The notes under the pieces are model-generated. The model was not told the origin of the DNA and did no database searches. It saw only the letters and a program-made list of their open reading frames with translations. Below are positions 1 through 20,325 of a DNA stretch of 64,000 nt, piece after piece (position 1 is the first letter of the stretch; every line of letters starts with the position of its first letter). A program made the translations under genes and the position numbers. Source of the stretch: Chryseobacterium contaminans (GTDB lineage Bacteria > Bacteroidota > Bacteroidia > Flavobacteriales > Weeksellaceae); NCBI RefSeq assembly GCF_001684955.1, contig NZ_MAYF01000001.1, positions 62,001-126,000 of the forward strand, written 5' to 3'.

Positions 1-2
1 AA

Positions 3-2216
3 ACAAGTTTCAGAGCGCTTGACAGAGCTGAATTGATTGAAGATGTAGATTATAATCTTATATCTGTCGTAATAAAAACTATATGCTTGGTAAATATTTT
101 TACTAAAACAGGGAGTCTCTTTGATAGTAAATTTATTTCACATTATATTCAATATACAACCGATTTTGAAGCTAATGATGTTGAAAAAGCGATTCTAAAG
201 TTGGAGAAGGCTGGAATAGTCCGCTTTTACAGACACAGTAATAAGATAAATTTTTTAGAAGGCACCGATTTAGATATTGAACATGAATTAGCGGCAGTTT
301 CTAAAGAAATCAATCATGATTTTTCTGTGATGCATGCAATTTCTGACCTCATTGATTTTCCGGTTATATTAGTGAAGAAAAATTCTTTTGAAAAAGGAAC
401 GCCAAGGTTTTTTGAGTTTAAAATTTTAGCTGACCTTAGCCAAATCAGCACTGCAGAAGGAGCGCTGGATGGTTATATTAATTTAGTCCTTGATGGATCA
501 ATTAAAGAAAGAGATATCCGTAAAGCCTCGATTAATTCAGGAAGCAATCTTTTTGTAATATATAAAAACTCAAAAGAAATACATAATGAAATATTTACTA
601 TAAATAAACTTACATTTTTAATTAATAAGTATAAGGAAGATATTAATGCTGTTAAATTATTAAACACTGAATTAGAGTTTCATAAAGAACGATTAGAAAA
701 ATTTGTTTTAGATAATTTATTTATTTCCAATGACCAAAATATTTGGTATTACAATGGAGAGCTTGAGACTATTCAGTCAAAAAAATCTTTAAATGAAACA
801 CTCTCAAAAATTTGTGATCATGAATTTAGCCTAGCTCCCAATTTTAAAAATGAGTTGGTTAATAAAGAATTTCTAAGCCCTCAAATATTGACAGCTAGAA
901 AAGCACTTCTTCGTTACGCTTTATCCAATGAAGCTTTGGAAAATTTAGGGTTTGATGATAGTAAATTCCCCCCAGAAAAATCCATCTATATAACTCTATT
1001 ACGAGATACAGGAATTCATACAAAACAACTGTCACATTTTTGTTATTCATCTCCAACGGATCAATCATTTCAACCTTTATGGAATGCATGTACAGCATTT
1101 TTAAGTTCAGCGTATTCATCTAAAAGGAATCTAGGCGAATTATATGAGATTTTGAGTTGTGCTCCTTTTAAACTTAAGAAAGGATTTGTTGATTTTTGGA
1201 TTCCTTTATTTTTAATTATTAATAAAGAAGATTTTGCATTATTTCATGAAATAAATGGATTTATACCTTACATAACAGAAGATGTTTTGGATTTAATACA
1301 TAAATCCCCATCAAACTATTCAATAAAGAGTTATGATGTTTCAGGTTTAAAGTTAAATCTTCTGGAAAGTTATAAAGAGCTTGTTCAAGTCGGGGATGAT
1401 GTATTTGGAACCAAGAGTACATTTTTATCTATATTTGGTAGCTTTCTACGCTTTTACAGAGGTTTAAATGGATATGTGTTAAATACCAAAACAATTTCTC
1501 CGAAAGCATACAGTCTGAGGGAGGCTATCAAAAATGCGAAAGATCCGGAAGATGCTTTATTTAATCAATTCCCAAATGCTCTAGGCTTTCATTCTATTTC
1601 GATAAATGATGATGAGGAAATTTTAAAAACATTTACTTTTCATATCCAGGACTGCATTAGAGAGCTTCGCACTGCATACGATTCATTACTTAATAGAATA
1701 GAAGAAAAAATAGTTAACTCTTTTTATTGTAATTCAACAGAATTTATCGAGTATAAAAAAGAGATAAATGACCGATTAAATAATATTAATATTTACTTAT
1801 TAGGCAATGAGCAAGCTATTGTATTCAAAAGATTAACTTCTTCTTTAGATGACAGGGCATCATGGATTAAGTCCGTAGCTGATGCCGTTTTAGGGAAGTC
1901 TATTGATGTAATGATTGATGAAGAGGAAACCTTATTGATTTCAAATCTTGAAGAATTTATATTAGGTTTAATTAAAGCGTCCGAATTGCATGAATTTGGG
2001 CCTGATGAAAATAAAAGAATGATCTCCATTCAAGTAATTGGTACATCAGGAGCTATAATGGATGATAAAATTATCATTTCGAATGATCAATCTCCTGAGT
2101 TCGAAAATATAAAAGCACAATTTACGGATAGTTTATTTAAACTAGATATTCATAAACGTAAGCAACTACTTATGGAGTTGCTATCGAACGAATTTAAGAA
2201 AGATTTAGTATTATGA
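3..2216 (+). CDS. Large ATPase-type defence protein (BrxC/PglY-like), C-terminal part
   Basis: The reading frame is open to the left edge of the window (first full codon at base 3), so the 5' end and any P-loop lie outside; the TTG at 33 is not a credible start. The visible ~738 residues begin with a winged-helix-like segment, followed by a helical region with the pattern APFKLKKGF...IPLFLI...FIPYI. From memory this recalls the C-terminal regions of large P-loop proteins of BREX (BrxC, PglY) and related defence loci; that is recognition by pattern, not a search result. The stop overlaps the next start (ATGA, 2213-2216), so the PAPS-reductase gene downstream is probably translationally coupled. 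Likely role: energy-dependent sensing or restriction partner of the phosphorothioation system (inference). Confidence 0.6.
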   Translation, partial: TSFRALDRAELIEDVDYNLISVVIKTICLVNIFTKTGSLFDSKFISHYIQYTTDFEANDVEKAILKLEKAGIVRFYRHSNKINFLEGTDLDIEHELAAVSKEINHDFSVMHAISDLIDFPVILVKKNSFEKGTPRFFEFKILADLSQISTAEGALDGYINLVLDGSIKERDIRKASINSGSNLFVIYKNSKEIHNEIFTINKLTFLINKYKEDINAVKLLNTELEFHKERLEKFVLDNLFISNDQNIWYYNGELETIQSKKSLNETLSKICDHEFSLAPNFKNELVNKEFLSPQILTARKALLRYALSNEALENLGFDDSKFPPEKSIYITLLRDTGIHTKQLSHFCYSSPTDQSFQPLWNACTAFLSSAYSSKRNLGELYEILSCAPFKLKKGFVDFWIPLFLIINKEDFALFHEINGFIPYITEDVLDLIHKSPSNYSIKSYDVSGLKLNLLESYKELVQVGDDVFGTKSTFLSIFGSFLRFYRGLNGYVLNTKTISPKAYSLREAIKNAKDPEDALFNQFPNALGFHSISINDDEEILKTFTFHIQDCIRELRTAYDSLLNRIEEKIVNSFYCNSTEFIEYKKEINDRLNNINIYLLGNEQAIVFKRLTSSLDDRASWIKSVADAVLGKSIDVMIDEEETLLISNLEEFILGLIKASELHEFGPDENKRMISIQVIGTSGAIMDDKIIISNDQSPEFENIKAQFTDSLFKLDIHKRKQLLMELLSNEFKKDLVL

Positions 2217-3334
2217 GTGAAATAAAACATGTTTTAGGAATTTCGGGGGGTAAGGATAGTGCTGCTTTGGCGATATATATGAGTAGAAAACATCCAGATA
2301 TTAATGTAGAGTATTATACCTGTGATACGGGAAAGGAGCTTAAAGAGACTTATGATCTTATTAATAAACTTAATTCCGTATTAGGAAAAGATATAAAGCT
2401 TTACAAATCAATTGATGAACTTAATTCTCCAGAAAAGAATCCATTTGATCATTTTATGGCAGTCAATGGAGGTTATTTACCTTCAGCAACAGCTCGTTGG
2501 TGTACTACTAAAATGAAACTTCAGCCTTTTGAAGACGAAATTGGTGATGAACCCACAATATCTTATGTTGGTATTCGCGGAGATGAGAATAGGGAGGGAT
2601 ATATTTCTAAAAAAGAAAATATCCAATCAATTTTTCCTTTTAGAAAAAATATATGGAGTGAAGATGTAATTAAGAAATTCCTTTCAAATTCTAATATCAA
2701 TTTTATAATTGAACATTATGAGTTATTAGCTCCAGATCACCATCTTGAAACCATTTTAAATTATGTTAAGACCCCAATATCTCCGAGGTTTACTCAACGG
2801 CAGAAATTAAATGCTCTTTTGGATTCTGATGTTAAGTTATTTAACAAGGTCGTTTTTGCTTTTTTAAAGACGACAGATTATCCTGTAGGTAAGCTTGATC
2901 ACTTTTCATTAATAGAGAATGATGAAATTTTAGGGATTGATGATATTTTTCAAATTTTAGATGATTCAGGAGTCGGCATTCCAGCATATTATTTGCCTAT
3001 TGAGTATACGGTAGAAATTGATGGCGAAATAAAAAAAGGCATTTATTCAAGAAGTAGATCAGGATGTTTTTTCTGTTTTTTCCAGCAGAAAATCGAATGG
3101 GTGTGGCTTCTTGAGCAACACCCGGATCTATACGACGAGGCTATTAAATATGAAAAAGATGGTTTCACTTGGACTATTGAACCCCTAATGGAGTTGAAAA
3201 AACCTGAACGTGTAAATAGTATTAAAAAAGAACATTATTTACGCACAAATAGAGCCAAACCTCAAACAGCTACAAGTTGGCAAGACGAAATCCTTGAAGC
3301 AGAAGGGGAAGGTTGTGCGTCATGCTTTATTTAA
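2213..3334 (+). CDS. dndC: DndC/BrxP-like PAPS-reductase-family sulfurtransferase
   Basis: This is an ATP-pyrophosphatase of the PAPS reductase family, which activates substrate for sulfur transfer in DNA phosphorothioation. Visible motifs are the PP-loop SGGKDS at residues 11-16, CDTGKEL near 37-43, and ARWCTTKMK near 94-102. Two CxxC pairs, C285/C288 and C368/C371, the latter almost at the C-terminus, could supply four ligands for an Fe-S cluster as in DndC. At 373 aa it is shorter than typical DndC as I recall it. It overlaps the large ATPase gene upstream by 4 bp and meets dndB tail to tail with an 8-bp overlap at 3327-3334. BrxP of type IV BREX is the main alternative name, since it also belongs to this family and pairs with a BrxC-type ATPase. 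Confidence 0.78.
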   Translation: MSEIKHVLGISGGKDSAALAIYMSRKHPDINVEYYTCDTGKELKETYDLINKLNSVLGKDIKLYKSIDELNSPEKNPFDHFMAVNGGYLPSATARWCTTKMKLQPFEDEIGDEPTISYVGIRGDENREGYISKKENIQSIFPFRKNIWSEDVIKKFLSNSNINFIIEHYELLAPDHHLETILNYVKTPISPRFTQRQKLNALLDSDVKLFNKVVFAFLKTTDYPVGKLDHFSLIENDEILGIDDIFQILDDSGVGIPAYYLPIEYTVEIDGEIKKGIYSRSRSGCFFCFFQQKIEWVWLLEQHPDLYDEAIKYEKDGFTWTIEPLMELKKPERVNSIKKEHYLRTNRAKPQTATSWQDEILEAEGEGCASCFI

Positions 3335-4580
3335 TATCTTTTAAAACATCGTCAATATTATTGCCTTGAAAATTTATTGCAGAGGCATATTTAGTTTTAA
3401 GATTTTGTAATTCATATTGCTTTAATAAACTTTCGTCATATTTATATTTGAGAATTGATTTAATTAAAGTTTTATTACCCATAATCATGGTTTTCTCAAA
3501 ATCATTCCAAAGCACTTGCTTCCAGGGCTTTTGGTTAAGAGTTAAGTCAATTCCATTATAAAAGTTAAATATGTCACTGAAATTTTGATTTGTTAAAGGA
3601 ACCAACCCTAAAACACATTGGACAAATGGAAGCAATCCGATAGGTCTAAATAAAAGATTTCCTCCATCAATATTATTTCTGTAAGGCTCTGATGGATTTG
3701 CTCCAGTGTCTTGAGTAAAGGCATTAATATAATCAAAGCTATCTATAAAATCATTCCAAAATGAAGTTACAAATTGTTCATAAGAGGTAAGATCTTCTTC
3801 TTCAGGTCTAAATTTTAAATATTCAGCAAAGTTCTTATTATCTCTTTCTGGATTGGGGTTCACTTTTTTCTGCTGCTTTCTATGATATTTTAGTAATTCC
3901 ATATTACATTCATATAATGTAATGATTGATGTGAACGAATTTTTATCCTCAGGAGGGATTGCTTTATTTTTACTCTTAGTTACTTTTCTAGCTGTAAATA
4001 GCTTATGATTTTCTAATAAGTTTCTTGTTACTATAGCAATAGAGTCATCTTCATCTAAAGCTATAATATCATCCATTGTGACTGGTTTTGCATATCTATT
4101 AAGAGTTGAAAATAATCTTCTGGTTCTTTTTAAACCATTATCATCATTCTTATGACCAATGAAAATTGCAGAAATTTTCATTGTCCCTAATTCAGGATTT
4201 TCTGCCAATGCAGCCTTAATACCCTCAACACGATGTTGTCCATCTACTGGAAAGATTTTGTGATGACTAGGAAAGTCTAAAAGCCCTAACTGGTAGGTTT
4301 CTAACTCTTCATATTTTACCTCTATTTCAACCCAATCAGGATAATCATCATATACAGCTAAAACCAATGAATTGAAAAATAGTTCAGGTTGATGTAAAAT
4401 ATATTTTTTTATACTAATAAAATTATTAGTTATGCTTCTTTGAATAAGTTCTTTCAAACTTTCTGATTTATGTAGTTCATTATCTATTTTAGATACATAA
4501 TCATTCACTTGTTGAAATGTTAAGGTTGAAACATAATAGTCCCAATCTCCAATGCGCCCTTTAATTGCAGGTATTTTCAT
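3327..4580 (-). CDS. dndB: DndB-like DGQHR-domain protein
   Basis: The protein carries the diagnostic DGQHR motif (VDGQHRVEG, about residues 113-121), followed by a LFSTLNRYAKPV segment (about 156-167) of the R-x-LF-x-x-LN type shared by DGQHR/ParB-like fold proteins. In Dnd systems DndB is a regulator of modification frequency and of dnd transcription. It is the last gene of a seven-gene leftward operon and overlaps the convergent dndC by 8 bp. Length (417 aa) is in the usual range for the family. A generic DGQHR protein from another defence system is possible, but the neighbouring DndC-, DndD- and desulfurase-type genes favour DndB. Confidence 0.8.
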   Translation of the reverse strand: MKIPAIKGRIGDWDYYVSTLTFQQVNDYVSKIDNELHKSESLKELIQRSITNNFISIKKYILHQPELFFNSLVLAVYDDYPDWVEIEVKYEELETYQLGLLDFPSHHKIFPVDGQHRVEGIKAALAENPELGTMKISAIFIGHKNDDNGLKRTRRLFSTLNRYAKPVTMDDIIALDEDDSIAIVTRNLLENHKLFTARKVTKSKNKAIPPEDKNSFTSIITLYECNMELLKYHRKQQKKVNPNPERDNKNFAEYLKFRPEEEDLTSYEQFVTSFWNDFIDSFDYINAFTQDTGANPSEPYRNNIDGGNLLFRPIGLLPFVQCVLGLVPLTNQNFSDIFNFYNGIDLTLNQKPWKQVLWNDFEKTMIMGNKTLIKSILKYKYDESLLKQYELQNLKTKYASAINFQGNNIDDVLKDIK

Positions 4581-4584
4581 TTTA

Positions 4585-5109
4585 TTAAAATGCTTTAACA
4601 GCTTGTCTAGTTTCTAAATCTGGTATTTCATCATTCATTGGTAATAACAATGAATTAATTAATTTTTTTTCTAAATCTACAATTGCTAAGTTATCATCTA
4701 GCTCATAATATGCCAAATATAAATCCTGTTTCCAATAATTAAACATTCTGGTAATTTTTGGTCTTTCATTATTTCGACAAAATTTATTAAAATATTCTCT
4801 CACTCTTTTGCGCAAATTCTGCCCTTCTGTAATTTGTGCTCTTCCTATATAAAAAGGAATTTCCGTTATCCCGCTTATTGTTTGGCAACTAACATAAAAA
4901 AGATATAACCCTCCTTTGTCATTAGGAACAGAATCAATATCAGGGTGGAATCCATCTAAAGTATCATTTAAAAATTTAATTTTGTTCCAATTGCTAAAAT
5001 TTAGATCTAATTCTGTAATATCCCATTTTTGCCATAGTAAAGGTGAAACCTTAAAAGTAACCTCTCTTAATTTAAGATGTTCTCCCAAATCAAATGCTGA
5101 CTGTAACAT
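4585..5109 (-). CDS. GIY-YIG-type nuclease
   Basis: The 174-aa protein has a GIY-YIG core beginning near residue 66 with GLYLFYVS, then PFYIGRA (about 84-90) and the conserved arginine region LRKRVREYF; a DLEKKLI segment near 144-150 could provide the metal-binding glutamate. The family includes homing endonucleases, UvrC and some restriction enzymes, and cuts DNA with one metal ion. It lies 4 bp upstream of dndB in the same operon, so it is probably part of the phosphorothioation module. It could be the nuclease that attacks unmodified DNA, or a nickase helping sulfur insertion; both roles are inference. Confidence 0.72.
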   Translation of the reverse strand: MLQSAFDLGEHLKLREVTFKVSPLLWQKWDITELDLNFSNWNKIKFLNDTLDGFHPDIDSVPNDKGGLYLFYVSCQTISGITEIPFYIGRAQITEGQNLRKRVREYFNKFCRNNERPKITRMFNYWKQDLYLAYYELDDNLAIVDLEKKLINSLLLPMNDEIPDLETRQAVKAF

Positions 5110-5154: not shown

Positions 5155-5676
5155 CTAGTTTGTCTTATGTAAAATCATATCTAAATAAGACGTTGGATTT
5201 AGAAGATACCCAGGATTATCCTCAAGTTTTTCTTTTATTAAGATTAACCCCCCGTTAGTAAATGATTCCATAGTTTTAATAAGTTGTTTAACAATTTCAT
5301 CCTCAGTAATTTCACCTTTGTCTAAAGCAATTAGATCTATATCGGTTTTTGCAATTAAAGCTACAAAAATATACTCTTGTAGTTTAGTAAAATCTTTTCT
5401 GGTAAGAATGTTAGTTTTGCTTCCCCAATGTTGTATTGCGTGACTAAAATCAACCTTTTTAGAATCTAAATTAATTGGTACATATTCTTGATTATAAAGG
5501 CCTAGAAAAAAAGCATACATGTACAATTCATAATTATTGCTAAAAGTTTTTCCTAAATTATCTTTTTTCTCTCCTTCAGCACCATATTTTTTAGAAAGTG
5601 GATCAAATAGTAAACTTCTAAATGATTCGTCATACTTTGGAATTCTCGTTTTCCATTTGTCAAATAAGCTTTCCAT
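5155..5676 (-). CDS. Phosphorothioation-operon protein of unknown function
   Basis: I do not recognise this 173-aa protein. It is soluble and mostly helical by eye, with a central segment NYELYMYAFFLGLYNQ (about residues 47-62) and a later acidic region EITEDEIVKQLIKTME. Its stop lies 45 bp before the GIY-YIG start and its own start lies 2 bp after the dndD stop, so it is cotranscribed with dndD. Canonical dndE normally follows dndD; this protein sits in that place but does not show the DndE sequence I know. It could be a functional substitute or a divergent member. No signal peptide or membrane segment is visible. Confidence 0.75.
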   Translation of the reverse strand: MESLFDKWKTRIPKYDESFRSLLFDPLSKKYGAEGEKKDNLGKTFSNNYELYMYAFFLGLYNQEYVPINLDSKKVDFSHAIQHWGSKTNILTRKDFTKLQEYIFVALIAKTDIDLIALDKGEITEDEIVKQLIKTMESFTNGGLILIKEKLEDNPGYLLNPTSYLDMILHKTN

Positions 5677-5678
5677 AT

Positions 5679-7835
5679 TTATAATTCAATTTTTTCAGTG
5701 TTAATAGTTTTTAAATTTCTCTCATCAAATGGACGTTCTAATTTAAGCCAAAATGCTTTTTTCCTTTTTACATTATCAAACTCTTCTTTAATATATAAAT
5801 TTCTATTTTCATCTTTGCCTATGTAATCTTTTATCAATATAATAGTCTGGCTTTCTCGTTCATAAATTAGATTCAAAAACTCAGTCATCTTATTTTCTCC
5901 AAAAGATGACGTTGGAGCATCAAATACTAAAGGATAGCTCTCATTTCTAGTTTCATACGTGAGTTCCGAAATAGCAAGTAATATCGATATATGCATTGAG
6001 GTAAGTAAAGATTGATTAGGAGAATAAAAAATATTTCCGTCTTCTTCCTGAAGTTCAACTTTAACCTTAGTGCCTTTCGAGGTTCTATTTAATTTAAAGT
6101 CGATAATGCCTGTAAAGGAATCAACATTTATTTTAGAAAATATAGAATTAGACTTTTCTTGTAAAAGATTTATAAATTGATCAAACTTATTTCTTTTTGT
6201 TTCTTTTAATATAGTATCAATGTTTCTAAGGATATTACGAGTATTAATAAGAAATTTATTAGCATTAGTCAAATCAATCTCATCTTTTCGCTTCTCAAGT
6301 AGTTCAAGCTTGTTATTGATTTTTTCTAAATCTGCTAGATAGTCAGTAGTGTTTTGGTTTTCTGAAATAAGATCTTCCTGCCAAGTATTATAATTCTTAA
6401 GCACAACATCAAGTTCTTCAGAACCTATTACTGAAGAACCTATAATTTTACTTCTTTCACTAATTTCCTGTGCCAATTTCTCTTTAAGGTCTCCAATTTC
6501 ATCTTTTCGTGATTGATTAAACTCAAATAAATCTTCAATTTCCTTTGGGATATTTCTGATATTTAAAAGATTGTCTTCATGGCTATTGCTTGTATTTACT
6601 AGTTTATTAATATAATTGAATTTAAAAAGAGATTCAGGTTCGCTATTAGTTACTTTTTCTTGACTTTCCAAATATTCATGAAGTCTGTCAGTCATAAATT
6701 TCAATGCATCAGATCCCTTTTCTGCAGGGCGATTACATACCTTACAAAATTTATCTCTAATCATTTCCTCCATAATAGCTTTAGAAGGAGTGCCAATCGG
6801 AAGTGGAACAAGATTTTTCATTAGGTTTATATTGGCTCTTCTTTCACCTTCTTTGATTCCTTGTTCAAGAATAAATTCTGATTGAAGTTTTCGCTTTTCT
6901 TTACTAAAATTATTTATCTTCTCAGAAAATTCTCGATGAATACTTTCAAAATGTACCAAAATCCATTTTTCATCTAATAATGAGGTCGTATAATTTTCAG
7001 ATATTCTAGATTCAGCGGTTGAAATTTCCTCAGTTAATTTTCTTATCCTCCTATTAACAATATCAAGCGCTTTGGCATTGCTAACATATCTTTCTGCGTC
7101 TTTAATATTGTTTTTTGTCTTATCAATAGTATTGTTAGCTTCTTCTAAAAGAGTGAGAGTTCTCGTTTTCTTTCTAATTTCTTCACTAATATCTTTCTCT
7201 ATCTTAGAATACTCCTCTTGGTTTTTAGTATTGTTCTTAGTTGCTTGATCTACAGCTTTATTTGCTGTTACCTTAAGATATTCGCCTCTGGATTCATATT
7301 TTTCGTAGTGCCTCGCATCCGAAAATAAATTTACTAAACCAGTTAATGAATCTTCATTTACGAAAATATTTAATTCATCCTCTCCTTTAAACATTATATA
7401 TTTTAAAATTTGGCTTGGAAGAATATTTTCAAGCAACGTATATCCGTCAACCTTGAATCGTTCGCCATTCGTTGACTCTTCAATTCCAGTAATAGAAAAA
7501 TTACTGATTTGACAATTGTTATTTTCGTCTTTACTGACAGTAAATTTCTTTGACAATATTTTTTGCTGTCCAAATTGATCCACAGTAATTTCGACTCTAA
7601 CATTAAATGTACTGCCAGATTCTAATTCATGAAAAGCTTTTTTTGAAACTAATAAATCAAGATTACTATCATCATCTAGTCTTTGAGTTACAGTAAGCCA
7701 CTGCAGTGCTTCAAAAAACTTAGTTTTACCCTCGCCATTTTCACCTAATATTATATTTAGACCATTTGATAGGTTAAATTTTTTAATACCGTAATAGCAC
7801 AAATAATTTTCAATAAGTACTTCCTTAATAATCAT
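5679..7835 (-). CDS. dndD: DndD-like SMC/Rad50-type ATPase
   Basis: This is an ABC-type SMC-like ATPase with Walker A GENGEGKT at residues 33-40, long coiled coils on both sides of a CxxC hinge (CKVCNRPA, about residues 353-360), a signature-like region SPNQSLLTSMHI and a Walker B-like LVFDAPTSSF near the C-terminus. The CxxC resembles the zinc hook of Rad50. DndD proteins of the phosphorothioation machinery have this layout and are thought to open or reshape DNA so that sulfur can be inserted. The start overlaps the 79-aa gene upstream by 11 bp, suggesting translational coupling. A RecF/RecN-type ATPase from another system is the alternative, made less likely by the neighbours. Confidence 0.8.
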   Translation of the reverse strand: MIIKEVLIENYLCYYGIKKFNLSNGLNIILGENGEGKTKFFEALQWLTVTQRLDDDSNLDLLVSKKAFHELESGSTFNVRVEITVDQFGQQKILSKKFTVSKDENNNCQISNFSITGIEESTNGERFKVDGYTLLENILPSQILKYIMFKGEDELNIFVNEDSLTGLVNLFSDARHYEKYESRGEYLKVTANKAVDQATKNNTKNQEEYSKIEKDISEEIRKKTRTLTLLEEANNTIDKTKNNIKDAERYVSNAKALDIVNRRIRKLTEEISTAESRISENYTTSLLDEKWILVHFESIHREFSEKINNFSKEKRKLQSEFILEQGIKEGERRANINLMKNLVPLPIGTPSKAIMEEMIRDKFCKVCNRPAEKGSDALKFMTDRLHEYLESQEKVTNSEPESLFKFNYINKLVNTSNSHEDNLLNIRNIPKEIEDLFEFNQSRKDEIGDLKEKLAQEISERSKIIGSSVIGSEELDVVLKNYNTWQEDLISENQNTTDYLADLEKINNKLELLEKRKDEIDLTNANKFLINTRNILRNIDTILKETKRNKFDQFINLLQEKSNSIFSKINVDSFTGIIDFKLNRTSKGTKVKVELQEEDGNIFYSPNQSLLTSMHISILLAISELTYETRNESYPLVFDAPTSSFGENKMTEFLNLIYERESQTIILIKDYIGKDENRNLYIKEEFDNVKRKKAFWLKLERPFDERNLKTINTEKIEL

Positions 7836-12807: not shown

Positions 12808-12858
12808 TAACATAAACGGAGCTTATTTCCAAGCTTTGTATTCTCTAATTGAGATTAC

Positions 12859-13110
12859 ATGGAGGAAAAAGAATTTTTAAAAGAAGAAGTCTTAAAGAAA
12901 CTAGGCAAGAGGATAAAAGAAATTAGGATAGCTAAGGGTTATTCAAGCTACGAATATTTTGCATATGAGCATAATATATCCAGAGCTCAGTATGGTAGAT
13001 ACGAGAAAGGCGAGGACTTGAGATTTAGTACCTTAGCAAAGGTTATAAATGCCTTTGGGATGACTATGAATGAATTTTTTGCTGAAGGGTTCGAAGACAG
13101 TGAATGTTAA
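12859..13110 (+). CDS. Small XRE-family DNA-binding regulator
   Basis: The 83-aa protein is essentially one HTH_3/XRE domain: KRIKEIRIAKGYSSYEYFA (helices 1-2, about residues 17-35), the recognition-helix region SRAQYGRYEKGE (about 42-53), and a closing segment FSTLAKVINAFGMTMNEFF. Such single-domain repressors often control mobile-element or defence genes. It is transcribed away from the superinfection-immunity gene and towards the leftward transposition genes, so it may regulate either side; the target is not shown by the sequence. Confidence 0.78.
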   Translation: MEEKEFLKEEVLKKLGKRIKEIRIAKGYSSYEYFAYEHNISRAQYGRYEKGEDLRFSTLAKVINAFGMTMNEFFAEGFEDSEC

Positions 13111-13235: not shown

Positions 13236-14882
13236 TTAAATGAATAATTTCTTTATTTTTTCTAAAATATTACGGTAGCATAAATCTGAAACTCTTTTTT
13301 CTTCTACAGTTCCATCCTCTTTTTTTGTTTTCTTTTCAATACGGGTTCCTCCATTGTTATAGTTTGTGGGACTGCTAAATAAAAGTCCATCTGATTTTTT
13401 TTCTAACTCTCTTATTTTCTTCCAATTGTAATTGTTATCCGCAATTATAATAATGAAATTATTAATTTCATCATGCGTAAAGTTCTCCAAAGTAGATTTG
13501 TGAACCAGTTGAATCCTTTCATGGAATGCATCGTCAATCAGTAATAGTGAACGGTTGGACAAATCAGTAATAGTAAAGATTATTAAATCGTTATTTTTAT
13601 TAAGAAATTCTTCACAAGAGTATGTTGGTCTAAGCTTTTCAACAACAGAATGCAGCATAAAGAATATTTTCTCCTTATCAATTTTATTGTTCGTTTTATC
13701 TTCTTTACTACCTGAGGTTTCTGCTCCAGGAGAATCAGGATTGGGGTTTTTTGTATTGAAAGTTCCGTAATCTGATGTGGGATTAATAATTGGAGTACCT
13801 GAGCTCGCTTTTTCACTTAATTTATATTCTATAGATATTTGTACAATCTTATTTAAAAGATTGAGTCCAGATTCTATAAAGTTTTTAGAAAGATTAGGGT
13901 TTTTATCATCATTGGTTACAGTGGTGCTTTTATTTTTATTCCCTGGTTTGAATCTTTTACCCTTACCCGTATTATCATTATTACCATTATCATTTTTTTC
14001 ACCGGAAGTATAATCAATAAACTTAACAGTATCTACAGTGTATAAATTGCTAAAATTGTGAGAAGAAGTAATATCAATTATCTCAGTAACAATAAAGTAT
14101 TTTTTGCCATCCCTATTTATGTAGTAGCCTTTGGTCTCCAAATAAAGCTTTTCCTTTATTGGGACTTTAAAATTATATGAAATACTATTGGGATTGTTTA
14201 AAATTTGTTTATATAAATTAGCTTGTGTGTTAATTAGATTGTACCACAAGTAATCATCTTTTGAGAATAGAAAAAAAGCTAATGACTTAGCTAGTGCTTT
14301 TGTTAGTTGATCGCCTCTTTTTCTTACTGATATTTCGCCAACCTGAAGATCTTCTTGTTGTACAATACGCCATTTTATGAGATCTTTTAAGTCTCCAAAA
14401 TCATTACAGAATAAATTCTTGATTAGTAGTGAATTAATTAAATAGAAGGCTTGTCCTATAACAATTGATGGAACAATATATGTTACTGGACCTGATTCAT
14501 AGCTGCGCTCAAATTCATAGTATTGGCAACCTTCAGATTCTTTACCAAACTCTAAATTAGAGCTTGGATTATATGTTTGAAATTCAATTTCATCATAATT
14601 TTCTAACCAAAATGAGCGTTTGTAAAGTCTATTATTTAGTTTTTTTGATTCACTGTCAAAATTATCTCCTATTTTAAGAAATATCAAGCTTTCAATATTA
14701 TGGTTCCGATAAATATGAGATTGTATCTTCTCAACTTTAAATCCATCTACATACTCCGGAATAATATGTGCAAATTCTATTTTTGTATTGGTTTCTAAGT
14801 CAGAGCTTTGCAGTGCATTAGGGAAGTTTGTTATTTTGTAATATCCTTTGTTAATATGTGGAAGTTTAAATTGAAAATCCAT
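13236..14882 (-). CDS. tnsE: TnsE-like target-selection protein
   Basis: At 548 aa it is close to Tn7 TnsE in length and has a similar layout: an N-terminal domain containing TYIVPSIVIGQAFYLINS (about residues 134-151), which matches the corresponding TnsE segment of the IP-x-x-x-x-A-x-x-x-LINS type; a low-complexity Asn/Lys/Gly/Thr-rich linker (about 285-395); and a C-terminal domain beginning near residue 408. In Tn7, TnsE with TnsABC directs insertion into replicating or conjugating DNA through DNA 3' ends and the sliding clamp. It is the last gene of the transposition module, the position tnsE has in Tn7, 22 bp after the 159-aa gene. Divergent, so the call rests on layout, one motif and position. 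Confidence 0.7.
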   Translation of the reverse strand: MDFQFKLPHINKGYYKITNFPNALQSSDLETNTKIEFAHIIPEYVDGFKVEKIQSHIYRNHNIESLIFLKIGDNFDSESKKLNNRLYKRSFWLENYDEIEFQTYNPSSNLEFGKESEGCQYYEFERSYESGPVTYIVPSIVIGQAFYLINSLLIKNLFCNDFGDLKDLIKWRIVQQEDLQVGEISVRKRGDQLTKALAKSLAFFLFSKDDYLWYNLINTQANLYKQILNNPNSISYNFKVPIKEKLYLETKGYYINRDGKKYFIVTEIIDITSSHNFSNLYTVDTVKFIDYTSGEKNDNGNNDNTGKGKRFKPGNKNKSTTVTNDDKNPNLSKNFIESGLNLLNKIVQISIEYKLSEKASSGTPIINPTSDYGTFNTKNPNPDSPGAETSGSKEDKTNNKIDKEKIFFMLHSVVEKLRPTYSCEEFLNKNNDLIIFTITDLSNRSLLLIDDAFHERIQLVHKSTLENFTHDEINNFIIIIADNNYNWKKIRELEKKSDGLLFSSPTNYNNGGTRIEKKTKKEDGTVEEKRVSDLCYRNILEKIKKLFI

Positions 14883-14904: not shown

Positions 14905-15384
14905 TTAGGCTAAATTACATTGACGTTTATATTCCTTTATAGCATCTCTGTATTTTTGGTTATTAATATATGCTTTTTTAGGAATCATATTGTGATCTAG
15001 CCAATACACCTGACCCCAAAGTGATTTGTTCGTTTTCGGGATTCTATATTCATAAATCCTTTTTTCTTTTTCAAGTTTTTCCAGGTAGAAAATTATCTTT
15101 TTTTGACAGGATTTTTCTTCATATATAGTGTTTGATAGGTAACATAAAATCTCATTTTCAGATAGAAATTTATTCTTAAATTTCAGTAAATCTAATATCT
15201 GTTTTTCTGTTGAAATTTCAGTAGATGTTAGTACAGGATTAGGTTTTTTAGTGCTCTGATAATTAGGATGTAAAGTGTTTTTGTTTATTTGTTTTTTTAA
15301 TGTACAGCCAAATGGATTTTTCAACTTAAACAAGCTGCATTTTTTTTGTAAAATTTCTTGTAATTTCAGCATAATATATTTCAT
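14905..15384 (-). CDS. Unknown protein between tniQ and tnsE, winged-helix-like
   Basis: A basic 159-aa protein I do not recognise. The N-terminal third is rich in Lys, Asn and Cys; the C-terminal two thirds looks like a winged helix (STEKQILDLLKFKNKFLSE, then KIIFYLEKLEKEKRIYEY and a WGQVYWLD strand). It starts at the ATG ending at 15384; a second Met at codon 5 (15372) is also possible. It is cotranscribed with tnsE (22-bp gap) and separated from tniQ by 366 bp with strong hairpins. A DNA-binding accessory factor in target choice or a cargo regulator are both possible. Confidence 0.65.
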   Translation of the reverse strand: MKYIMLKLQEILQKKCSLFKLKNPFGCTLKKQINKNTLHPNYQSTKKPNPVLTSTEISTEKQILDLLKFKNKFLSENEILCYLSNTIYEEKSCQKKIIFYLEKLEKEKRIYEYRIPKTNKSLWGQVYWLDHNMIPKKAYINNQKYRDAIKEYKRQCNLA

Positions 15385-15750: not shown

Positions 15751-16719
15751 TTATAAACTTTTAAAAAGTTTTTCAAATGAATATGGAAGAGTCGAATCTT
15801 TTTTGAATTCACTCAATCGTAGATTGTGCTTCTGTATGAGAAACTGGAAAAACGAAAAGTCTTCAATGATTTTAAATGCAGTTTCAAAAAGGATTCTTCT
15901 ATTGGCAATTGACCACAAATACCAACTTCCGTCTTCAATAGGTAGTGGACCAAATTCAAATTCACATGCATTTCTAAGTCTTCCCCAAGTATTATGTTTG
16001 CGACTTATGAGCAAAAGTATAATATGTAGTACTTTGAAATAACTGAAACTATACTGGAATTCTTCAGAGTATCCATCCTTCAATATAGAATTGATTTTTG
16101 TCTGAAGAAAAATTTGTGAACTATTGGCATATTCCCAGTTTGAGGAAAGTGAAGCTGCACAAAATGAGCAAGTATCGAGTGGTTGAGCTAGAATTTTGTT
16201 TTTATTTCCCTGTTCCAATCTGTGAAAAGATATTCCATTGCCACAAGATTTACAGCAATCTTGTAGTAAAATTTTACAGTCAGTACAAAAGTAGGAAATT
16301 GAAAGTCTCCAGGCTTTTTTGTAATAAGGCTTTTTTCCAACACAGCCAGAGCAGTACATTAAGCTAGCATTTTTTCTTTTTCTGTGAAAAATTCCTAAGG
16401 GAAGAATTCCCAGAGTGTTTCCATTTATGTTTTTCTTTTCAAACAGGGTTGTTTCGTAGGAAGTCAAAAATAAATTTTCAACATCTTGATCTGAAAGTGG
16501 ACTATTTTCAACTAAAACTTTTTTTAAATAATCACTGGCACTATTGTCAATGTCTCTATTCCAGAGCTGTTCTTTACCAAAATAATACTTTGCAAACGAA
16601 TGACTTTTTACTCCATGGGCTTGTGATAGCCTAAAGAACCAGCTTGTAAAGAGCTCGTTTTTATATGGTGGAATGTAATGTGCCCATATATTTTTTTCTA
16701 ATGTTTGAATATAAGGCAT
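15751..16719 (-). CDS. tniQ: TniQ-family target-selection protein
   Basis: The N-terminus (HYIPPYKNELFTSWFFRLSQ) is the typical TniQ opening. A zinc-binding region follows: CSGC (about residues 120-123), CTDC, CKSC and CSFC, with HRLEQG in between. At 322 aa it is a short TniQ, without the long C-terminal DNA-binding extension of TnsD. TniQ/TnsD proteins bring TnsC to the chosen DNA site, so this protein is the first candidate for choosing comM. Its start shares one base with the tnsC stop, making it the fourth gene of the leftward tns operon. Confidence 0.87.
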   Translation of the reverse strand: MPYIQTLEKNIWAHYIPPYKNELFTSWFFRLSQAHGVKSHSFAKYYFGKEQLWNRDIDNSASDYLKKVLVENSPLSDQDVENLFLTSYETTLFEKKNINGNTLGILPLGIFHRKRKNASLMYCSGCVGKKPYYKKAWRLSISYFCTDCKILLQDCCKSCGNGISFHRLEQGNKNKILAQPLDTCSFCAASLSSNWEYANSSQIFLQTKINSILKDGYSEEFQYSFSYFKVLHIILLLISRKHNTWGRLRNACEFEFGPLPIEDGSWYLWSIANRRILFETAFKIIEDFSFFQFLIQKHNLRLSEFKKDSTLPYSFEKLFKSL

Positions 16720-17618
16720 TATAAATTAGCTCTTCGCAAAATTTTCTTTCTATCCTCTGGAGCAACGTATTCAATATTATCCAAAATTTTGTGATCAATT
16801 TTATTGAGCCCACTATTAAGAGCAAGCTCGGCTGCTTTTACTAAGATGGTATTTATTTCTCCGATCAGACCATCTGACATTGCTAAAATTCTTGATGCCA
16901 TTGAGTTCTCAGCAAGATATGACGGGTTTTCAAGAGGGAGAAGTGCCTCATAATTTACGAGAAACTGTAAGTATACATCATTCATTTTCCATCTTTCCAG
17001 TATAACTGTTTCAAACCTATTCGAGAGTTGGGAATCAGACTGAATGACATTGAATGCATCGCGAATACCTACACAGATAATTGGAATTTTTAGTTCATTG
17101 CTTAAATACTTTAGAACATTCAAAAATATTCGTTGTTTAAGAGGACTTCCTGCAAGAACATGATGTATTTCATCAACGATAATAAGTTTTACTTCTAGTT
17201 TCTTAAACAAGGAAATAATCCTTCTTTGTTTTATATCTGGACTTTCACTTTTTATTATTGGTGCATTGAGAATTTGTAGGATTTTATTATAAAAGCTCTT
17301 CTCATCGGGTTCTGCTGGTGCCTGTACAACAAGCACTGGAGCGATAACAACATCATATTCTCCTTTCCGGATATATGGATTGTTTTTCTTATAAAACCTA
17401 TTAATCAATGCTGTTTTTCCATTGTTTGTTTCTCCAACAATCAATAAATTAGGCATTCGATCTACCGTTGGGTAGTTTTTAAGGTCGTCCAATTTTGCTA
17501 GTATTTTATCAGCATTAGGATAAGGAATCCATTTTTGTTTTCTTAAATGAAAGATTTTTTCTTCTAGGCTTCCATTTAAAACAAGCTCCTTGGTTTTAGT
17601 TGTCAAATGCTTCATCAT
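16719..17618 (-). CDS. tnsC: TnsC/TniB-type AAA+ ATPase
   Basis: An AAA+ regulator with Walker A GETNNGKT (residues 62-69), Walker B LIIVDEIHHVL and a sensor region IICVGIRDAFNVI, ending in the SNRFE arginine segment. TnsC connects target-site selectors with the TnsAB transposase and controls when transposition starts. At 299 aa it is closer in size to TniB than to the larger E. coli Tn7 TnsC. The start overlaps the tnsB end by 23 bp, which suggests coupled translation. Confidence 0.9.
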   Translation of the reverse strand: MMKHLTTKTKELVLNGSLEEKIFHLRKQKWIPYPNADKILAKLDDLKNYPTVDRMPNLLIVGETNNGKTALINRFYKKNNPYIRKGEYDVVIAPVLVVQAPAEPDEKSFYNKILQILNAPIIKSESPDIKQRRIISLFKKLEVKLIIVDEIHHVLAGSPLKQRIFLNVLKYLSNELKIPIICVGIRDAFNVIQSDSQLSNRFETVILERWKMNDVYLQFLVNYEALLPLENPSYLAENSMASRILAMSDGLIGEINTILVKAAELALNSGLNKIDHKILDNIEYVAPEDRKKILRRANL

Positions 17619-19512
17619 CTAAGTTTTCAAATGGTTTTAGTGTGAATTCGTTTTCAAAGTTAATCTCTTTAGTATCCGAAGTTTGAGTTTTGTTAACCTC
17701 GGATAATTCTAGGTCATTATTGACTTTTGTAATATTTTCCAGAAAGTTTTCTTTACCATTGAATTCTTTTGTTATCATCCTTCTGGAATTCTTGGAAAGT
17801 TTTTTTGTTGCTTTTATGGCTTTTAATTCAATTTCTTCCAGCTTTTTATAGCTTTCAAATATATGTGCCTCATTAATAGCCCCGGTATTATCTTCTTTCC
17901 ATTTTTTTACTGCAGCTCTATACTCCCACACTGACATAGGAGGATAGCGGGTATCTCTGTAAGGTATTTCAAAATATTCATTTAGGTCCGGATCAAAAAA
18001 ATAGATGACGCTTATGTCTTTAGGATTTCTCCTGAAAGAATACTTCTTTAAATTCTTACTGTTATTAGGAGTATTGATGTATTTTCTTAATACTTCATCA
18101 TAATAGTGAATATGATCGATCACAACTCCTGTTGCCTGTATCGTTCTTTCTAAATAAGGCATAAAGTCAAGTCTTATCTTTCTTTCATCATGGAAACGTG
18201 GGGGAAGTCCCATACCTTTAGTTTCATTATTACCAAATATTCCTTCAATATATTTTTCTTCAGGAGTCATTCCAATGCCAGAATGTACAGTTTTATGATA
18301 TACATCGATTATATAAGTAACCATCCATTTTTCAAACTCTGCTAGCGTGAATGAAGCGTGTTTTTCAGATTTATAAGTTGAGCGTTCCCTCGTGTTTGAA
18401 AATGTTGTGCCTGGGAGATCATGAACCGCTTTTGAAAATGAGCCAAGAAATCTTTCAATATGTCCTCCATAGTGTGGAGTAGCTACAGGGCGGAACTCAA
18501 GATTAATACCATAATTTTCACATGCTTTTTTTAGCATAATTCCTCGAAACTCTTTTGCATTATCAACGTGAATAGTTTCCATTACTCCCCAACATCCCCA
18601 TGATCCATCAACTCCTAATTTTTGAAGATATGTTTCCTTGGCCAGAATGGCGTTTGAAATACATAAACCTGTTCCCATAGCTCCAGGTGGATCAAATGAA
18701 ATGTTGATTCCTAAAATCATCCGACTGTAGACATCAATGGCAACAGTTAAATATGGTCTATTAAAAGGCTGACGAAATACTTCATCAACAAGTATTATAT
18801 CTACCGGTGTATGATCGATCTGAACTACAGATAGGGGGTAGTGAGCATGTGGAAAATTACCTCTTATTGGCCTAAATTTATTGTCAGAAATTTTTTTGCC
18901 ATAACGTTGTTTGACCTTTTCCTCTTCAGAAATCTCGTTTATACGTCTTCGTATTGTTGTTGAGTGTGGCATTTGTATACCCAGTTTATTACACTCAAAC
19001 GCAATTGCTCTAATTAGATAATTTATAGATTTCCTAAAGGAAGTCAAGTATATTTCATTGATGCATTTCTGTATTATCTCTTCTTGCTCTGAAGATAGTC
19101 GTGATTTTCCCCGCCCACCATTTTTCTTTTTGCCAAGTATTGAACCGATGCTTCCAGTTTGTTCATACCGGCTTATCCACCTATAAATCGTTGCTTTATC
19201 AACTTTAGCTTCTTTAGCTGCTCTTTCAACAATTTTTAAGTCTCCTCGATTCTCAAGAACTGGTCGGATAATCTGAAATCTTTCCTGTGCTTTTGTCCAT
19301 TCTTTATCTGTAAAATCAAGCATATCTCTATTATTAGATTCCTGTTGAGCGTCAGCAGGAGAGATGTCACCAATATTAACCGTATGTATTATACCGCTTT
19401 CTATTTCCTCAATACTTACACGCTTAATATCAATATTTCTAATGATAGTACATGGAATATCATTATAAGTTATTTGCTGACCGACATTCAGATAAAAAAT
19501 TTCCTGTTTCAT
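17596..19512 (-). CDS. tnsB: TnsB-type DDE transposase
   Basis: A Mu/Tn7-family transposase that binds the transposon ends and joins their 3' strands to the target. An N-terminal helix-turn-helix (AAKEAKVDKATIYRWISR, about residues 98-115) is followed by a second DNA-binding region. The catalytic core has D233 (QIDHTPVD), D317 (HVDNAKEF) and E353 (GGHIERFLG). A C-terminal tail from about 560 carries the acidic, charged segment expected to touch TnsC. Length 638 aa is normal. It overlaps tnsA by 4 bp and tnsC by 23 bp. Confidence 0.93.
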   Translation of the reverse strand: MKQEIFYLNVGQQITYNDIPCTIIRNIDIKRVSIEEIESGIIHTVNIGDISPADAQQESNNRDMLDFTDKEWTKAQERFQIIRPVLENRGDLKIVERAAKEAKVDKATIYRWISRYEQTGSIGSILGKKKNGGRGKSRLSSEQEEIIQKCINEIYLTSFRKSINYLIRAIAFECNKLGIQMPHSTTIRRRINEISEEEKVKQRYGKKISDNKFRPIRGNFPHAHYPLSVVQIDHTPVDIILVDEVFRQPFNRPYLTVAIDVYSRMILGINISFDPPGAMGTGLCISNAILAKETYLQKLGVDGSWGCWGVMETIHVDNAKEFRGIMLKKACENYGINLEFRPVATPHYGGHIERFLGSFSKAVHDLPGTTFSNTRERSTYKSEKHASFTLAEFEKWMVTYIIDVYHKTVHSGIGMTPEEKYIEGIFGNNETKGMGLPPRFHDERKIRLDFMPYLERTIQATGVVIDHIHYYDEVLRKYINTPNNSKNLKKYSFRRNPKDISVIYFFDPDLNEYFEIPYRDTRYPPMSVWEYRAAVKKWKEDNTGAINEAHIFESYKKLEEIELKAIKATKKLSKNSRRMITKEFNGKENFLENITKVNNDLELSEVNKTQTSDTKEINFENEFTLKPFENLDDEAFDN

Positions 19513-20213
19513 TTTGGATAAGAATTTTCATATAGCTCATCAAGCCAAATTACAGAATCCATTGTTAAGGGCTGCTCCCAAATACACCTGATGATATTTA
19601 TTGAAACCATATACCACATGTAATATATGAGTTCCATCTGTTTATATTTATCTCTTGCACACACCTGGATAAGCTCCCTTGGTGTCGTACATTGCAAATC
19701 ACACATGGTTTTTTGGATGAGCTGTATATCCGGATTTTGATGATCAAAAGTATTCTTTTTATATCTGTATAAGAATTTACAGTTTTCAAGATATTCAGTT
19801 CTTATATCCTCTTCAGTAAGAACTTTAAATTCATAACTATTCTTTTCGCAAAATTCCTCAGCGGCCTTGAATTTGGGCTGATAAATAGCTGAATTCTTTT
19901 CTAGATCTTCTTTGTACTTTATTTCTACAAGTAATGGCTTTGCTCCCTTTGAGGCAAACCGGTAGTGCCAGTAAAATAAAAAGTCAGGAGTGTAAGATCG
20001 TTGTTTTCCTTCAGAATCTGAGTAATAAATAGTAACTGGCTGCTCGTGATAGGATTCAATAATCCAGTCCATCTCTAGTAGAAATATAAAATCTCTTTCC
20101 AGAGAAGATTCAAACTGGACTTCTTTATTGGTTTTAGCACTGAAAAAACTTCCAGATAGTGAGCTATGTTTTAAGCCAATTTTTCTCACCTTATTTTGTA
20201 TGATTGGTACCAT
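19509..20213 (-). CDS. tnsA: TnsA-type endonuclease subunit
   Basis: A restriction-enzyme-like nuclease that cuts the 5' strands at the transposon ends, giving cut-and-paste movement together with TnsB. The active-site residues are visible as E39 (SSLERDF), D77 (SYTPDFLF) and E97-x-K99 (LVEIKYK), the PD-(D/E)xK arrangement of Tn7 TnsA. Length is 234 aa. It is the first gene of the tns operon; its ATG lies 112 bp inside the right terminus, and its promoter probably overlaps the TnsB-binding sites. Confidence 0.92.
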   Translation of the reverse strand: MVPIIQNKVRKIGLKHSSLSGSFFSAKTNKEVQFESSLERDFIFLLEMDWIIESYHEQPVTIYYSDSEGKQRSYTPDFLFYWHYRFASKGAKPLLVEIKYKEDLEKNSAIYQPKFKAAEEFCEKNSYEFKVLTEEDIRTEYLENCKFLYRYKKNTFDHQNPDIQLIQKTMCDLQCTTPRELIQVCARDKYKQMELIYYMWYMVSINIIRCIWEQPLTMDSVIWLDELYENSYPK

Positions 20214-20236
20214 CTAAGATAAGAATTTAAAATTGG

Positions 20237-20325
20237 TCGCATGTACTTTGCGAAAAAATATACAAAGTAGGTGCGAATATGGGCAATTTCTCCATTTTAT
20301 TTTGCATTTACTTTGCAAATATACA
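20237..20325. repeat. Tn7-like right end with TnsB-type binding sites
   Basis: Read inward from 20325 the terminus starts TGTATATTTGCAAAGTAAAT. The core TTTGCAAAGTAAATGC (20304-20319) recurs as TTCGCAAAGTACATGC (20240-20255) with 14 of 16 bases identical. A third, opposite copy (CAAAGTAGGTGCGA, 20263-20276) forms an inverted pair with the second. The TGT...ACA terminus and multiple related sites match the organisation of Tn7 ends. Immediately outside is TGGAG (20326-20330), the expected 5-bp duplication, then comM. Confidence 0.82.
20316..20323 (-). promoter_or_regulatory. Possible tnsA promoter box inside the transposon end
   Basis: On the minus strand the terminal site reads TATATTTG, an exact TAnnTTTG box directed at tnsA, giving a leader of about 100 nt. 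TnsB bound to the end would cover it. In Tn7, TnsB is known to repress tns expression from the right end. The -33 element would lie in comM and no TTG was found there. Confidence 0.35.

What the first reader, a model, noticed from the sequence alone, without database searches (positions are those of the whole stretch)
1..20325. Tn7-like element in comM of a flavobacterium carrying a DNA phosphorothioation defence locus
Seen: complete tnsA/B/C, tniQ and tnsE-like genes, right end with repeated TnsB-type sites, junction with a comM fragment, and a dnd-type locus as cargo. Known: Tn7-like elements use several conserved target genes, comM being one (e.g. in Acinetobacter), and often carry defence genes. 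A combination of the comM site, Bacteroidota host, TnsE branch and phosphorothioation cargo is not one I know as described.
Basis: partly seen in the sequence, partly recalled or inferred. Interest (0 to 1): 0.82.

Follow-up and report, generated by a model that had tools for sequence, protein, structure and literature searches.

The report
Tn7-like defence island inside comM
A 45-kb jumping element of the Tn7 kind has inserted itself precisely into the comM gene of a Chryseobacterium and carries a phosphorothioation-type anti-phage system; the kind is known, but this lineage seems to find comM without the targeting protein that its studied relatives need.

Summary
The element runs from C1:36853 to window 20325 (45,473 bp; window = C1:62001-126000), splits comM, and has TGT...ACA ends with three TnsB-type sites each and a 5-bp duplication, TGGAG. 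TnsA, TnsB, TnsC and TniQ are confirmed; the 548-aa protein is a diverged TnsE. The 'dnd' locus is an SspABCD phosphorothioation set beside a PbeA-type module and DndB. In the family sample 21 of 296 genomes have a relative of its TnsB, all 21 at comM. Published surveys already report comM-targeting Tn7-like elements (Tn6022) and DND cargo in Tn7-like elements, Bacteroidetes included. New here: (1) no recognisable TnsF, the comM selector of Tn6022; complete sister elements of 11-15 kb share only TnsA/B/C, a short TniQ, TnsE and often a resolvase-like gene; (2) SspABCD beside PbeA recurs, in 8 of 14 SspD-bearing genomes of the sample; (3) unlike this element, many sisters have lost part of comM next to an exact transposon end, without target duplication. 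Verdict: new variant of a known kind.

The parts
1..20325 (.). Part of the Tn7-like element that lies in the window; the element begins 25,147 bp left of the window at C1:36853 (45,473 bp in all)
   Evidence: ends, 5-bp TSD TGGAG on both sides, end sites
20326..21004 (+). 3' part of comM (first 5 bases = TSD TGGAG); 5' part at C1:35991-36854 (L004:2991-3854)
   Evidence: sequence; comM 3' part beside the element in 21 of 21 TnsB-bearing genomes of the family sample, one of them (G214) with further loss on this side
20236..20318 (.). Right-end TnsB-type sites at 20236 (-, 3 mismatches), 20260 (+, 4), 20301 (-, 1); left-end sites at C1:36860, 36879, 36900
   Evidence: chance level
19509..20213 (-). 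tnsA, 234 aa; FESSLE / YTPDF / EIKY motifs present (their catalytic role is recalled)
17596..19512 (-). tnsB, 638 aa, DDE transposase
16719..17618 (-). tnsC / TniB ATPase, 299 aa
15751..16719 (-). tniQ, 322 aa, short form
14905..15384 (-). 159-aa ORF (P159), present in the own element and all five close sisters, function unknown
   Evidence: no family match; AF2 model too poor to use, pLDDT 44.5
13236..14882 (-). diverged tnsE, 548 aa
   Evidence: hhalign against authentic TnsE and sister proteins, SSB/PriB-like N-terminal matches
12859..13110 (+). small HTH (Cro/C1-type) protein
   Evidence: present in 4 of 5 close sister elements
12332..12691 (-). 119-aa protein, Imm_superinfect + SHOCT domains
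   Evidence: present in 4 of 5 close sister elements
10290..11408 (-). sspA-type cysteine desulfurase (SspA 6.9e-148; DndA 2e-145)
8067..10280 (-). pbeA-type SF2 helicase
   Evidence: PADLOC PbeA E=0
7825..8064 (-). 79-aa ORF in the PbeB position (position only, not scanned)
5679..7835 (-). ABC ATPase with a CKVC motif (seen by eye), PbeC/LmuB-like
   Evidence: PADLOC LmuB 3.3e-20, PbeC 1.8e-15
5155..5676 (-). 173-aa protein in the PbeD position; weak dnd_assoc_4 match only (E 0.0055, below cut-off)
   Evidence: homologues beside PbeA in many relatives
4585..5109 (-). 174-aa protein; weak UvrC hint (E 0.058)
3327..4580 (-). dndB-like
   Evidence: PF14072 1.7e-31, PADLOC DndB 9.3e-25
2213..3334 (+). 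sspD
   Evidence: PADLOC 2.4e-84
1..2216 (+). 3' part of sspC (begins at C1:60992); sspB lies just left, C1:60121-61002

Best explanation
The locus is a complete Tn7-like transposon that inserted precisely into comM just upstream of the stretch coding the Walker B motif. SHOWN from sequence: two matching ends, 5-bp duplication, split comM, intact comM in most relatives, full tnsABC-tniQ-tnsE set. INFERRED from Tn7: TnsB and TnsA cut the element out and join it to the target, and TnsC links the transposase to a target selector. INFERRED here: the comM site is chosen by the short TniQ (322 aa), alone or with TnsE, because no TnsF-like gene accompanies it; the diverged TnsE gives a second route into replicating or conjugating DNA, as in Tn7. 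INFERRED: insertion inactivates ComM, which would lower uptake of competing DNA by transformation. The cargo is read as marking DNA with phosphorothioate (SspA sulfur donor, SspB/C/D modification), paired with a PbeA helicase and an ABC ATPase that act on unmarked DNA, so that the island pays for its keep as an anti-phage system (INFERRED from the named families).
For: Ends, TSD and sites. Families. TnsE: hhalign of branch I against authentic TnsE prob 71.7, E 3.5e-5; sister proteins against authentic TnsE prob 93.3, E 2.6e-7; branch I against sisters prob 99.2, E 1.3e-19; control against TnsC prob 0.1, E 0.61. The model's N-terminal half matches SSB/PriB folds, the architecture Faure 2023 reports for TnsE (section 11 read). 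comM intact (open frame >=511 aa) in 62 of 78 genus genomes. comM 3' part beside the element in 21 of 21 TnsB-positive genomes out of 296 searched. In 7 complete short sister elements TnsB, TnsC and TniQ are shared by 7 of 7 and TnsA by 6; TnsE by 6 of 7 at the BLAST link, and the 579-aa gene of the seventh (L042) begins almost like that of L041/L084, which is a row of the TnsE-like alignment; no gene of TnsF size next to tniQ is shared. SspD within about 15 kb of PbeA in 8 of 14 SspD genomes.
Against: No transposition, phosphorothioation or defence was measured. TnsF absence rests on gene content, not on a search with an authentic TnsF sequence, which I did not obtain. TnsE homology of the window protein alone is modest (prob 71.7) and its model is of middling confidence (pLDDT 69.1). 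Foldseek E-values were all above 0.1 and VIA Z below 8, which may mean only common folds; the best VIA row (Z 6.7) is a secretion chaperone matched to the C-terminal part. The 173-aa and 79-aa proteins were not shown to be PbeD and PbeB. The best PADLOC match of the ABC ATPase is LmuB, not PbeC.
Confidence: 0.85

Rival explanations
1. It is an ordinary Tn6022-family transposon whose TnsF has diverged beyond recognition or is supplied in trans; targeting works exactly as in Acinetobacter.
For: Same target gene and region, similar end letters (TGT...ACA), 5-bp TSD, TnsE present as in Tn6022. Faure 2023 says a short TniQ is a hallmark of elements with an additional selector. The own element still holds unassigned genes of 412-508 aa.
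Against: No gene of TnsF size follows tniQ in the window or in the complete short sister elements; in branch II tniQ is followed at once by the convergent tnsE.
Confidence: 0.25
2. The 159-aa protein beside tniQ is a new comM-binding target selector that stands in for TnsF.
For: Lies between tniQ and tnsE and is present in the own element and five of five close sisters, its C-terminal two thirds most conserved.
Against: Not found in the branch II sisters, which sit in the same comM site, so it is not needed for the choice of comM in the clade; no usable fold model.
Confidence: 0.1
3. The element is a decayed relic and the defence locus is maintained for other reasons.
For: tniQ carries a shift of frame in three close sister elements.
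Against: All tns genes of the window are open, both ends and the TSD are perfect, and five sisters at 91-94% TnsB identity sit in other species with different TSDs.
Confidence: 0.1

Closest known systems
Tn6022 family (AjTn6022; Faure et al. 2023, PMC10293859, sections 11 and 14 and passages read)
   Same: TnsA, TnsB, TnsC, short TniQ, TnsE; insertion in the comM region coding the AAA+ Walker B; 5-bp TSD; TGT-type ends (ends and TSD of a relative, Tn6929, from passages of PMC12904642)
   Different: Tn6022 needs TnsF for comM; no TnsF-like gene was recognised here. Here tnsE is on the same strand as tnsABC, behind a 159-aa gene; in the more distant sisters and in Tn6022 it is on the opposite strand. 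Host is Bacteroidota.
Tn7
   Same: Gene order tnsA-B-C-(tniQ/D)-E on one strand in the window element; TnsE homology
   Different: Target is comM, not the site by glmS; TniQ is short (322 aa) rather than a long TnsD (Tn7 target and TnsD recalled)
SspABCD-SspE / SspABCD-SspFGH (PMC8092258, passages read)
   Same: SspA, B, C, D
   Different: No DUF262 domain, which SspE carries (recalled), was found in the genome; partner is a PbeA-type module with an ABC ATPase and DndB. SspFGH is described as having only a Walker A in SspF and FtsK-like similarity in SspH; it was not searched for here.
DndCDEA-PbeABCD (PMC6459918, search listing only; domain reading from passages of PMC10853773)
   Same: PbeA helicase, ABC ATPase of CxC kind by eye, small ORFs in matching order
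   Different: Modification genes are Ssp, not Dnd; no Pfam DndE match in the genome

Membership tests
Tn7-like transposon | TnsA endonuclease, TnsB DDE transposase, TnsC ATPase, TniQ/TnsD | tested here: met
   TnsA motifs in alignment
Tn7-like transposon | TGT/ACA ends with several TnsB sites each and a 5-bp TSD | tested here: met
   TSD TGGAG on both sides
Tn7-like transposon | Site-specific insertion | tested here: met
   21 of 21 TnsB-positive family genomes have it beside the comM 3' part, 20 of them at the same site within a few bases and one (G214) with further loss on that side
Tn7-like transposon | Transposition activity | not testable with these tools
   needs bench work
TnsE | Homology to authentic TnsE | tested here: met
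   hhalign with control; direct score modest (prob 71.7), bridged by the sister proteins
TnsE | Two N-terminal SSB/PriB-like domains | tested here: inconclusive
   SSB/PriB chains among the matches for residues 8-84 and 83-272, but Z about 4-5
Tn6022 family | Target in comM beside the Walker B codons | tested here: met
   insertion at VALVGG/GSYPQPGEISLAHNGVLFLDE
Tn6022 family | TnsF encoded next to TniQ | tested here: not met
   by gene content only; no authentic TnsF was available for a homology search
Tn6022 family | tnsE on the opposite strand | tested here: not met
   same strand in the window element and 5 of 5 close sisters; opposite in G294 and in the 14 branch II loci
SspABCD system | SspA, SspB, SspC, SspD | tested here: met
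   (for the desulfurase, SspA and DndA models score alike)
SspABCD system | Single-stranded phosphorothioate at CPSCA | not testable with these tools
   needs mass spectrometry or nick-based sequencing
Dnd system | DndC, DndD, DndE | tested here: not met
   in the locus: DndC 1.3e-4 only against SspD 2.4e-84, no DndD or DndE model hit in the ten proteins scanned; no PF08870 (DndE) match in the genome at E 0.1; DndB present
PbeABCD module | PbeA | tested here: met
   PADLOC PbeA E=0, residues 11-727
PbeABCD module | PbeC | tested here: inconclusive
   PbeC 1.8e-15 over the first 278 residues, LmuB scores better, 3.3e-20
PbeABCD module | PbeB and PbeD | tested here: inconclusive
   only small ORFs in the right positions; no family match of note for the 173-aa one; the 79-aa one was not scanned

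The most novel reading that the evidence does not exclude
In Bacteroidota a lineage of Tn7-like elements finds comM with a short TniQ and no TnsF, and its sister branches often end up joined to comM asymmetrically: the transposase repeatedly makes deletions that start exactly at the left transposon end and run about 60 to 680 bp into the target gene, also where the TnsA motifs are intact. Of 33 elements whose comM 5' piece was found and whose right flank was at hand (Kangiella included), 12 are precise and all 12 have a TSD; 21 have lost part of comM, and in the 16 of these in which both flanks were read none has a TSD.
Probability: 0.5. Interest if true: 0.62.

Novelty: new variant of a known kind. 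Interest (0 to 1): 0.5.

Why it matters
Tn7-like elements are of interest as gene-insertion tools, and which protein chooses the target is the key question. A lineage that reaches the same conserved comM site as Tn6022 without TnsF is a natural comparison: TniQ (or TniQ plus TnsE) should be enough, which can be tested in E. coli with existing assays. The SspABCD-Pbe pairing offers a candidate restriction partner for part of the many sspBCD loci that have neither SspE nor SspFGH (among 2,678 sspBCD loci PMC8092258 counts 196 with sspFGH, 199 with sspE and 36 more with both; passages read). Target-gene deletions that begin exactly at the transposon end would show how such islands rearrange their target after or during insertion.

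Tried and rejected
Pfam, NCBIfam and PDB sequence searches with the TnsE-like and 159-aa proteins: nothing useful. The TnsE crystal domain did not appear in the fold lists; this is not taken as evidence either way. AF2 of the 159-aa protein with two rows: pLDDT 44.5, not used. Reading the 548-aa protein as TnsF rather than TnsE was considered because it lies where TnsF lies in Tn6022; the TnsE profile match argues against it. Loss of TnsA activity as the cause of the one-sided deletions was considered and rejected as a general cause: of the 13 shortened Chryseobacterium elements the TnsA motifs are degraded in three (G276, G256, G252) and present in ten; C. arachidis, which groups with the three on the TnsC tree and has the same degraded motifs, has a perfect TSD. 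Search for a Tn6022 TnsF through an Acinetobacter plasmid: that element proved to be another Tn7-like kind with a long TnsC. A plasmid search with the G294 TnsE-like protein gave no match. The TnsC tree clusters comM targeting (7 changes against a shuffled mean of about 29), but 'other' there means only that no comM was seen in the fetched stretch, and the tree was made by the quick method. Nothing on Tn7-like elements of Chryseobacterium was found (two irrelevant hits); nothing linking SspABCD with Pbe genes in one locus appeared in the listings or in the passages of PMC10853773; all this covers open-licence PMC papers only.
Full report
What is there. The window is C1:62001-126000 of a 4.70-Mb assembly in 365 contigs; its one strong comM-type ChlI match lies left of the window at C1:36048-36416. 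Taking stretches of the contig completed the element. The left end, TGTGATTTTGTAAAGTAAATGCGAA..., follows comM residue ~287 and the five bases TGGAG and begins at C1:36853. The right end...TTTACTTTGCAAATATACA, stops at window 20325 and is followed by the same TGGAG and the rest of comM. The element is 45,473 bp. Three 18-bp sites lie at each end (left 1, 2, 2 mismatches; right 3, 4, 1). Of sites with three or fewer mismatches all 5 lie within 90 bp of an end, against 0 or 1 in 50 simulations of the whole element. The element has 28.6% G+C, the window right of base 22000 36%.

Transposition genes. TnsA, TnsB, TnsC and TniQ are clear by Pfam. The next two genes, 159 and 548 aa, match no Pfam or NCBIfam family. 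For the 548-aa protein I collected homologues from sister elements and real TnsE proteins from plasmid records. Profile comparison links branch I to branch II (prob 99.2, E 1.3e-19), branch II to authentic TnsE (93.3, 2.6e-7) and branch I to authentic TnsE (71.7, 3.5e-5); an unrelated control gave 0.1 and 0.61. An AF2 model (pLDDT 69.1) has SSB/PriB-like matches for its N-terminal half, at scores that alone would prove nothing. Faure 2023 (section 11 read) reports two N-terminal SSB domains related to PriB for TnsE. I take the protein as a diverged TnsE.

Relatives. TnsB finds 21 of 296 genomes of the family, all of the same genus, named Chryseobacterium in the public loci. In 21 of 21 the comM 3' part lies next to the right end; in one, G214, the right end has also lost comM sequence, up to residue ~440. 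The window's TnsC has a match at E<=1e-40 in only 2 of 395 genomes of the phylum sample, itself included, but an alignment query brought 79 loci, among them comM-located elements in Flavobacterium, Aquimarina, Tenacibaculum, Marinifilum, Ancylomarina, Mucilaginibacter, Hymenobacter, Paludibacter and, outside the phylum, Kangiella and Sulfurimonas. On a quick TnsC tree of 86 rows, 33 of the 42 rows labelled comM, all Bacteroidota, fall into one group of 34 (support 94, not starred), whose last member lies on a short contig; nine comM rows, five of them Bacteroidota, lie elsewhere. comM is intact in 62 of 78 genus genomes by open-frame length; 14 have a shortened frame and 2 no match.

How comM is chosen. 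In Tn6022, TnsF binds the comM Walker B region and is essential (Faure 2023, sections 11 and 14 and passages read). Here the insertion point lies about 14 codons before the GVLFLDE stretch, so the address is the same. But no TnsF-size gene follows tniQ: the window has the 159-aa gene and tnsE; branch II has tnsE at once, on the opposite strand. In seven complete elements of about 11-15 kb TnsB, TnsC and TniQ are shared by 7, TnsA by 6, TnsE by 6 at the BLAST link (the seventh, L042, has a 579-aa gene that begins almost like the TnsE-like gene of L041/L084) and a gene that looks like a serine resolvase (by eye) by 5. One of them, C. arachidis, has a perfect TSD. So TniQ of 322-328 aa, with or without TnsE, is the likely selector. 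This is inference from gene content; no TnsF sequence was at hand. Proteobacterial relatives with TnsE and a TniQ of about 340-350 aa lie beside other genes (genes judged by eye).

Cargo. Between the ends, going from the left: small proteins, an OEP channel and a C39-ABC exporter with a protein that looks HlyD-like (by eye), a pair of RNA-ligase-like proteins (the first matches T4 RNA ligase 1, E 5e-4 to 7e-4; the second carries NUDIX), a TmtA-like 1100-aa protein, then sspB-sspC-sspD on the + strand facing dndB, 174 aa, 173 aa, an ABC ATPase, a 79-aa ORF, pbeA and sspA on the - strand. The genome has no DUF262 match at E 0.001 and no Pfam DndE match at E 0.1 (the control genomes rang in 8 and 1 of 14). 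PbeA occurs in 11 of 296 and SspD in 14 of 296 family genomes; 8 have both, about 0.5 expected by chance, and in those 8 the two genes lie within about 15 kb. Six SspD genomes have no PbeA match and three PbeA genomes no SspD match. In a second sample of 296 genomes of the order PbeA was found in 11, four of them already in the family sample. Of the 17 PbeA stretches that I fetched (the own locus not counted) SspD was seen in 11; in G204 it lies just outside, in G085 only SspB and SspC were seen, and in four no Ssp gene. So the pairing is a recurrent module, also outside Tn7-like elements as far as the stretches show. PMC8092258 (passages read) counts 196 sspBCD loci with sspFGH, 199 with sspE and 36 more with both among 2,678. 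In a second comM element, that of G184, the same Ssp/Pbe genes are cargo.

One-sided deletions. For 33 elements the comM 5' piece and the right flank were compared (Kangiella included). Left out: G262 and L072 (no 5' piece found), L076 (not held), L114 and L118 (other arrangement), G910 (5' piece reaches residue 287, right flank not fetched), the Sulfurimonas loci (not examined). 12 are precise and 12 of 12 have matching 5-mers on both sides. 21 have lost part of comM (5' piece ending at residue 61 to 267), at a different place in nearly every one. In 20 of these the join is exactly at a TGTCA-type transposon end; Flavobacterium ZT3R18 is the exception. The script read both flanks in 16 of the 21, and 0 of 16 have matching 5-mers; the five not read are G214, G257, Flavobacterium ZT3R18, Hymenobacter and Aquimarina. 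The window element and its close kin (7 of 7) are precise. Adjacent deletion by an intramolecular event, or a second nearby insertion followed by recombination, would give this picture; I cannot tell them apart. TnsA motifs are present in 10 of the 13 shortened Chryseobacterium elements; in the other eight they were not examined.

Against what is known. Benler 2021 (passages read) lists DND genes in 14 Tn7-like transposons with Bacteroidetes among the hosts and places Tn6022 and Bacteroidetes elements in one clade, a clade in which tnsE occurs. The variant features are the missing TnsF, tnsE on the tns strand behind a new small gene, and the Ssp-Pbe cargo.

Noticed in passing
L056-L068, L156, L158, L160, L161, L163-L165 (left junctions); L034 right junction near 5236: Sister elements have lost about 60-680 bp of comM next to an exact left transposon end, without TSD where it could be read; in G214 (L034) comM is lost on the right side as well.
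   Followed up: partly
L231 965-2929, L233 1027-2874, L234 998-3010 (coordinates with comM on the + strand): In three other genomes comM is split at residue 282-285, within about 20 bp of the Tn7-like site, and the gene just inside is a 615-670 aa protein that looks like a large serine recombinase (by eye); in L232 a 1-kb insert sits there. The site looks like a shared hotspot.
   Followed up: partly
L030 8790-9754, L032 10136-11100, L033 8771-9735: tniQ of three close sister elements (G279, G184, G169) has a run of nine A and a shift of reading frame at the same place, yet these elements are precise insertions: slippage or programmed frameshift is possible.
   Followed up: partly
tnsA of L045, L046, L047 and L083: TnsA of G276, G256, G252 and C. 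arachidis lacks the FESSLE and E(V/I)KY motifs, while a resolvase-like gene is present in these elements: perhaps replicative transposition.
   Followed up: partly
L114 / L159 / L166 (contig with comM pieces 1-86 and 83-287, about 33 kb apart): A groundwater Bacteroidetes genome has comM broken at two places, as if two elements sit in the same gene.
   Followed up: no
C1:43245-51096 (left of the window): Cargo holds a C39-peptidase ABC exporter, an OEP channel, an HlyD-like protein (by eye) and a 412-aa protein with a GG-type leader and an HExxH motif (by eye): perhaps a secreted antibacterial protein and its exporter.
   Followed up: partly
C1:52593-54921 (left of the window): Two adjacent genes, one T4-RNA-ligase-1-like, the next with an N-terminal NUDIX domain.
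   Followed up: partly
window 12332-13110; L029, L031, L032, L033: A Cro/C1-type HTH gene and an Imm_superinfect/SHOCT gene on the opposite strand occur together in the own element and in 4 of 5 close sisters: possibly a conserved accessory pair.
   Followed up: no
L029-L033: TnsE and the 159-aa protein show different identity patterns to the own element among close sisters (TnsE 95% with P159 69% in L029; TnsE 45% with P159 92% in L030), suggesting recombination between elements.
   Followed up: no
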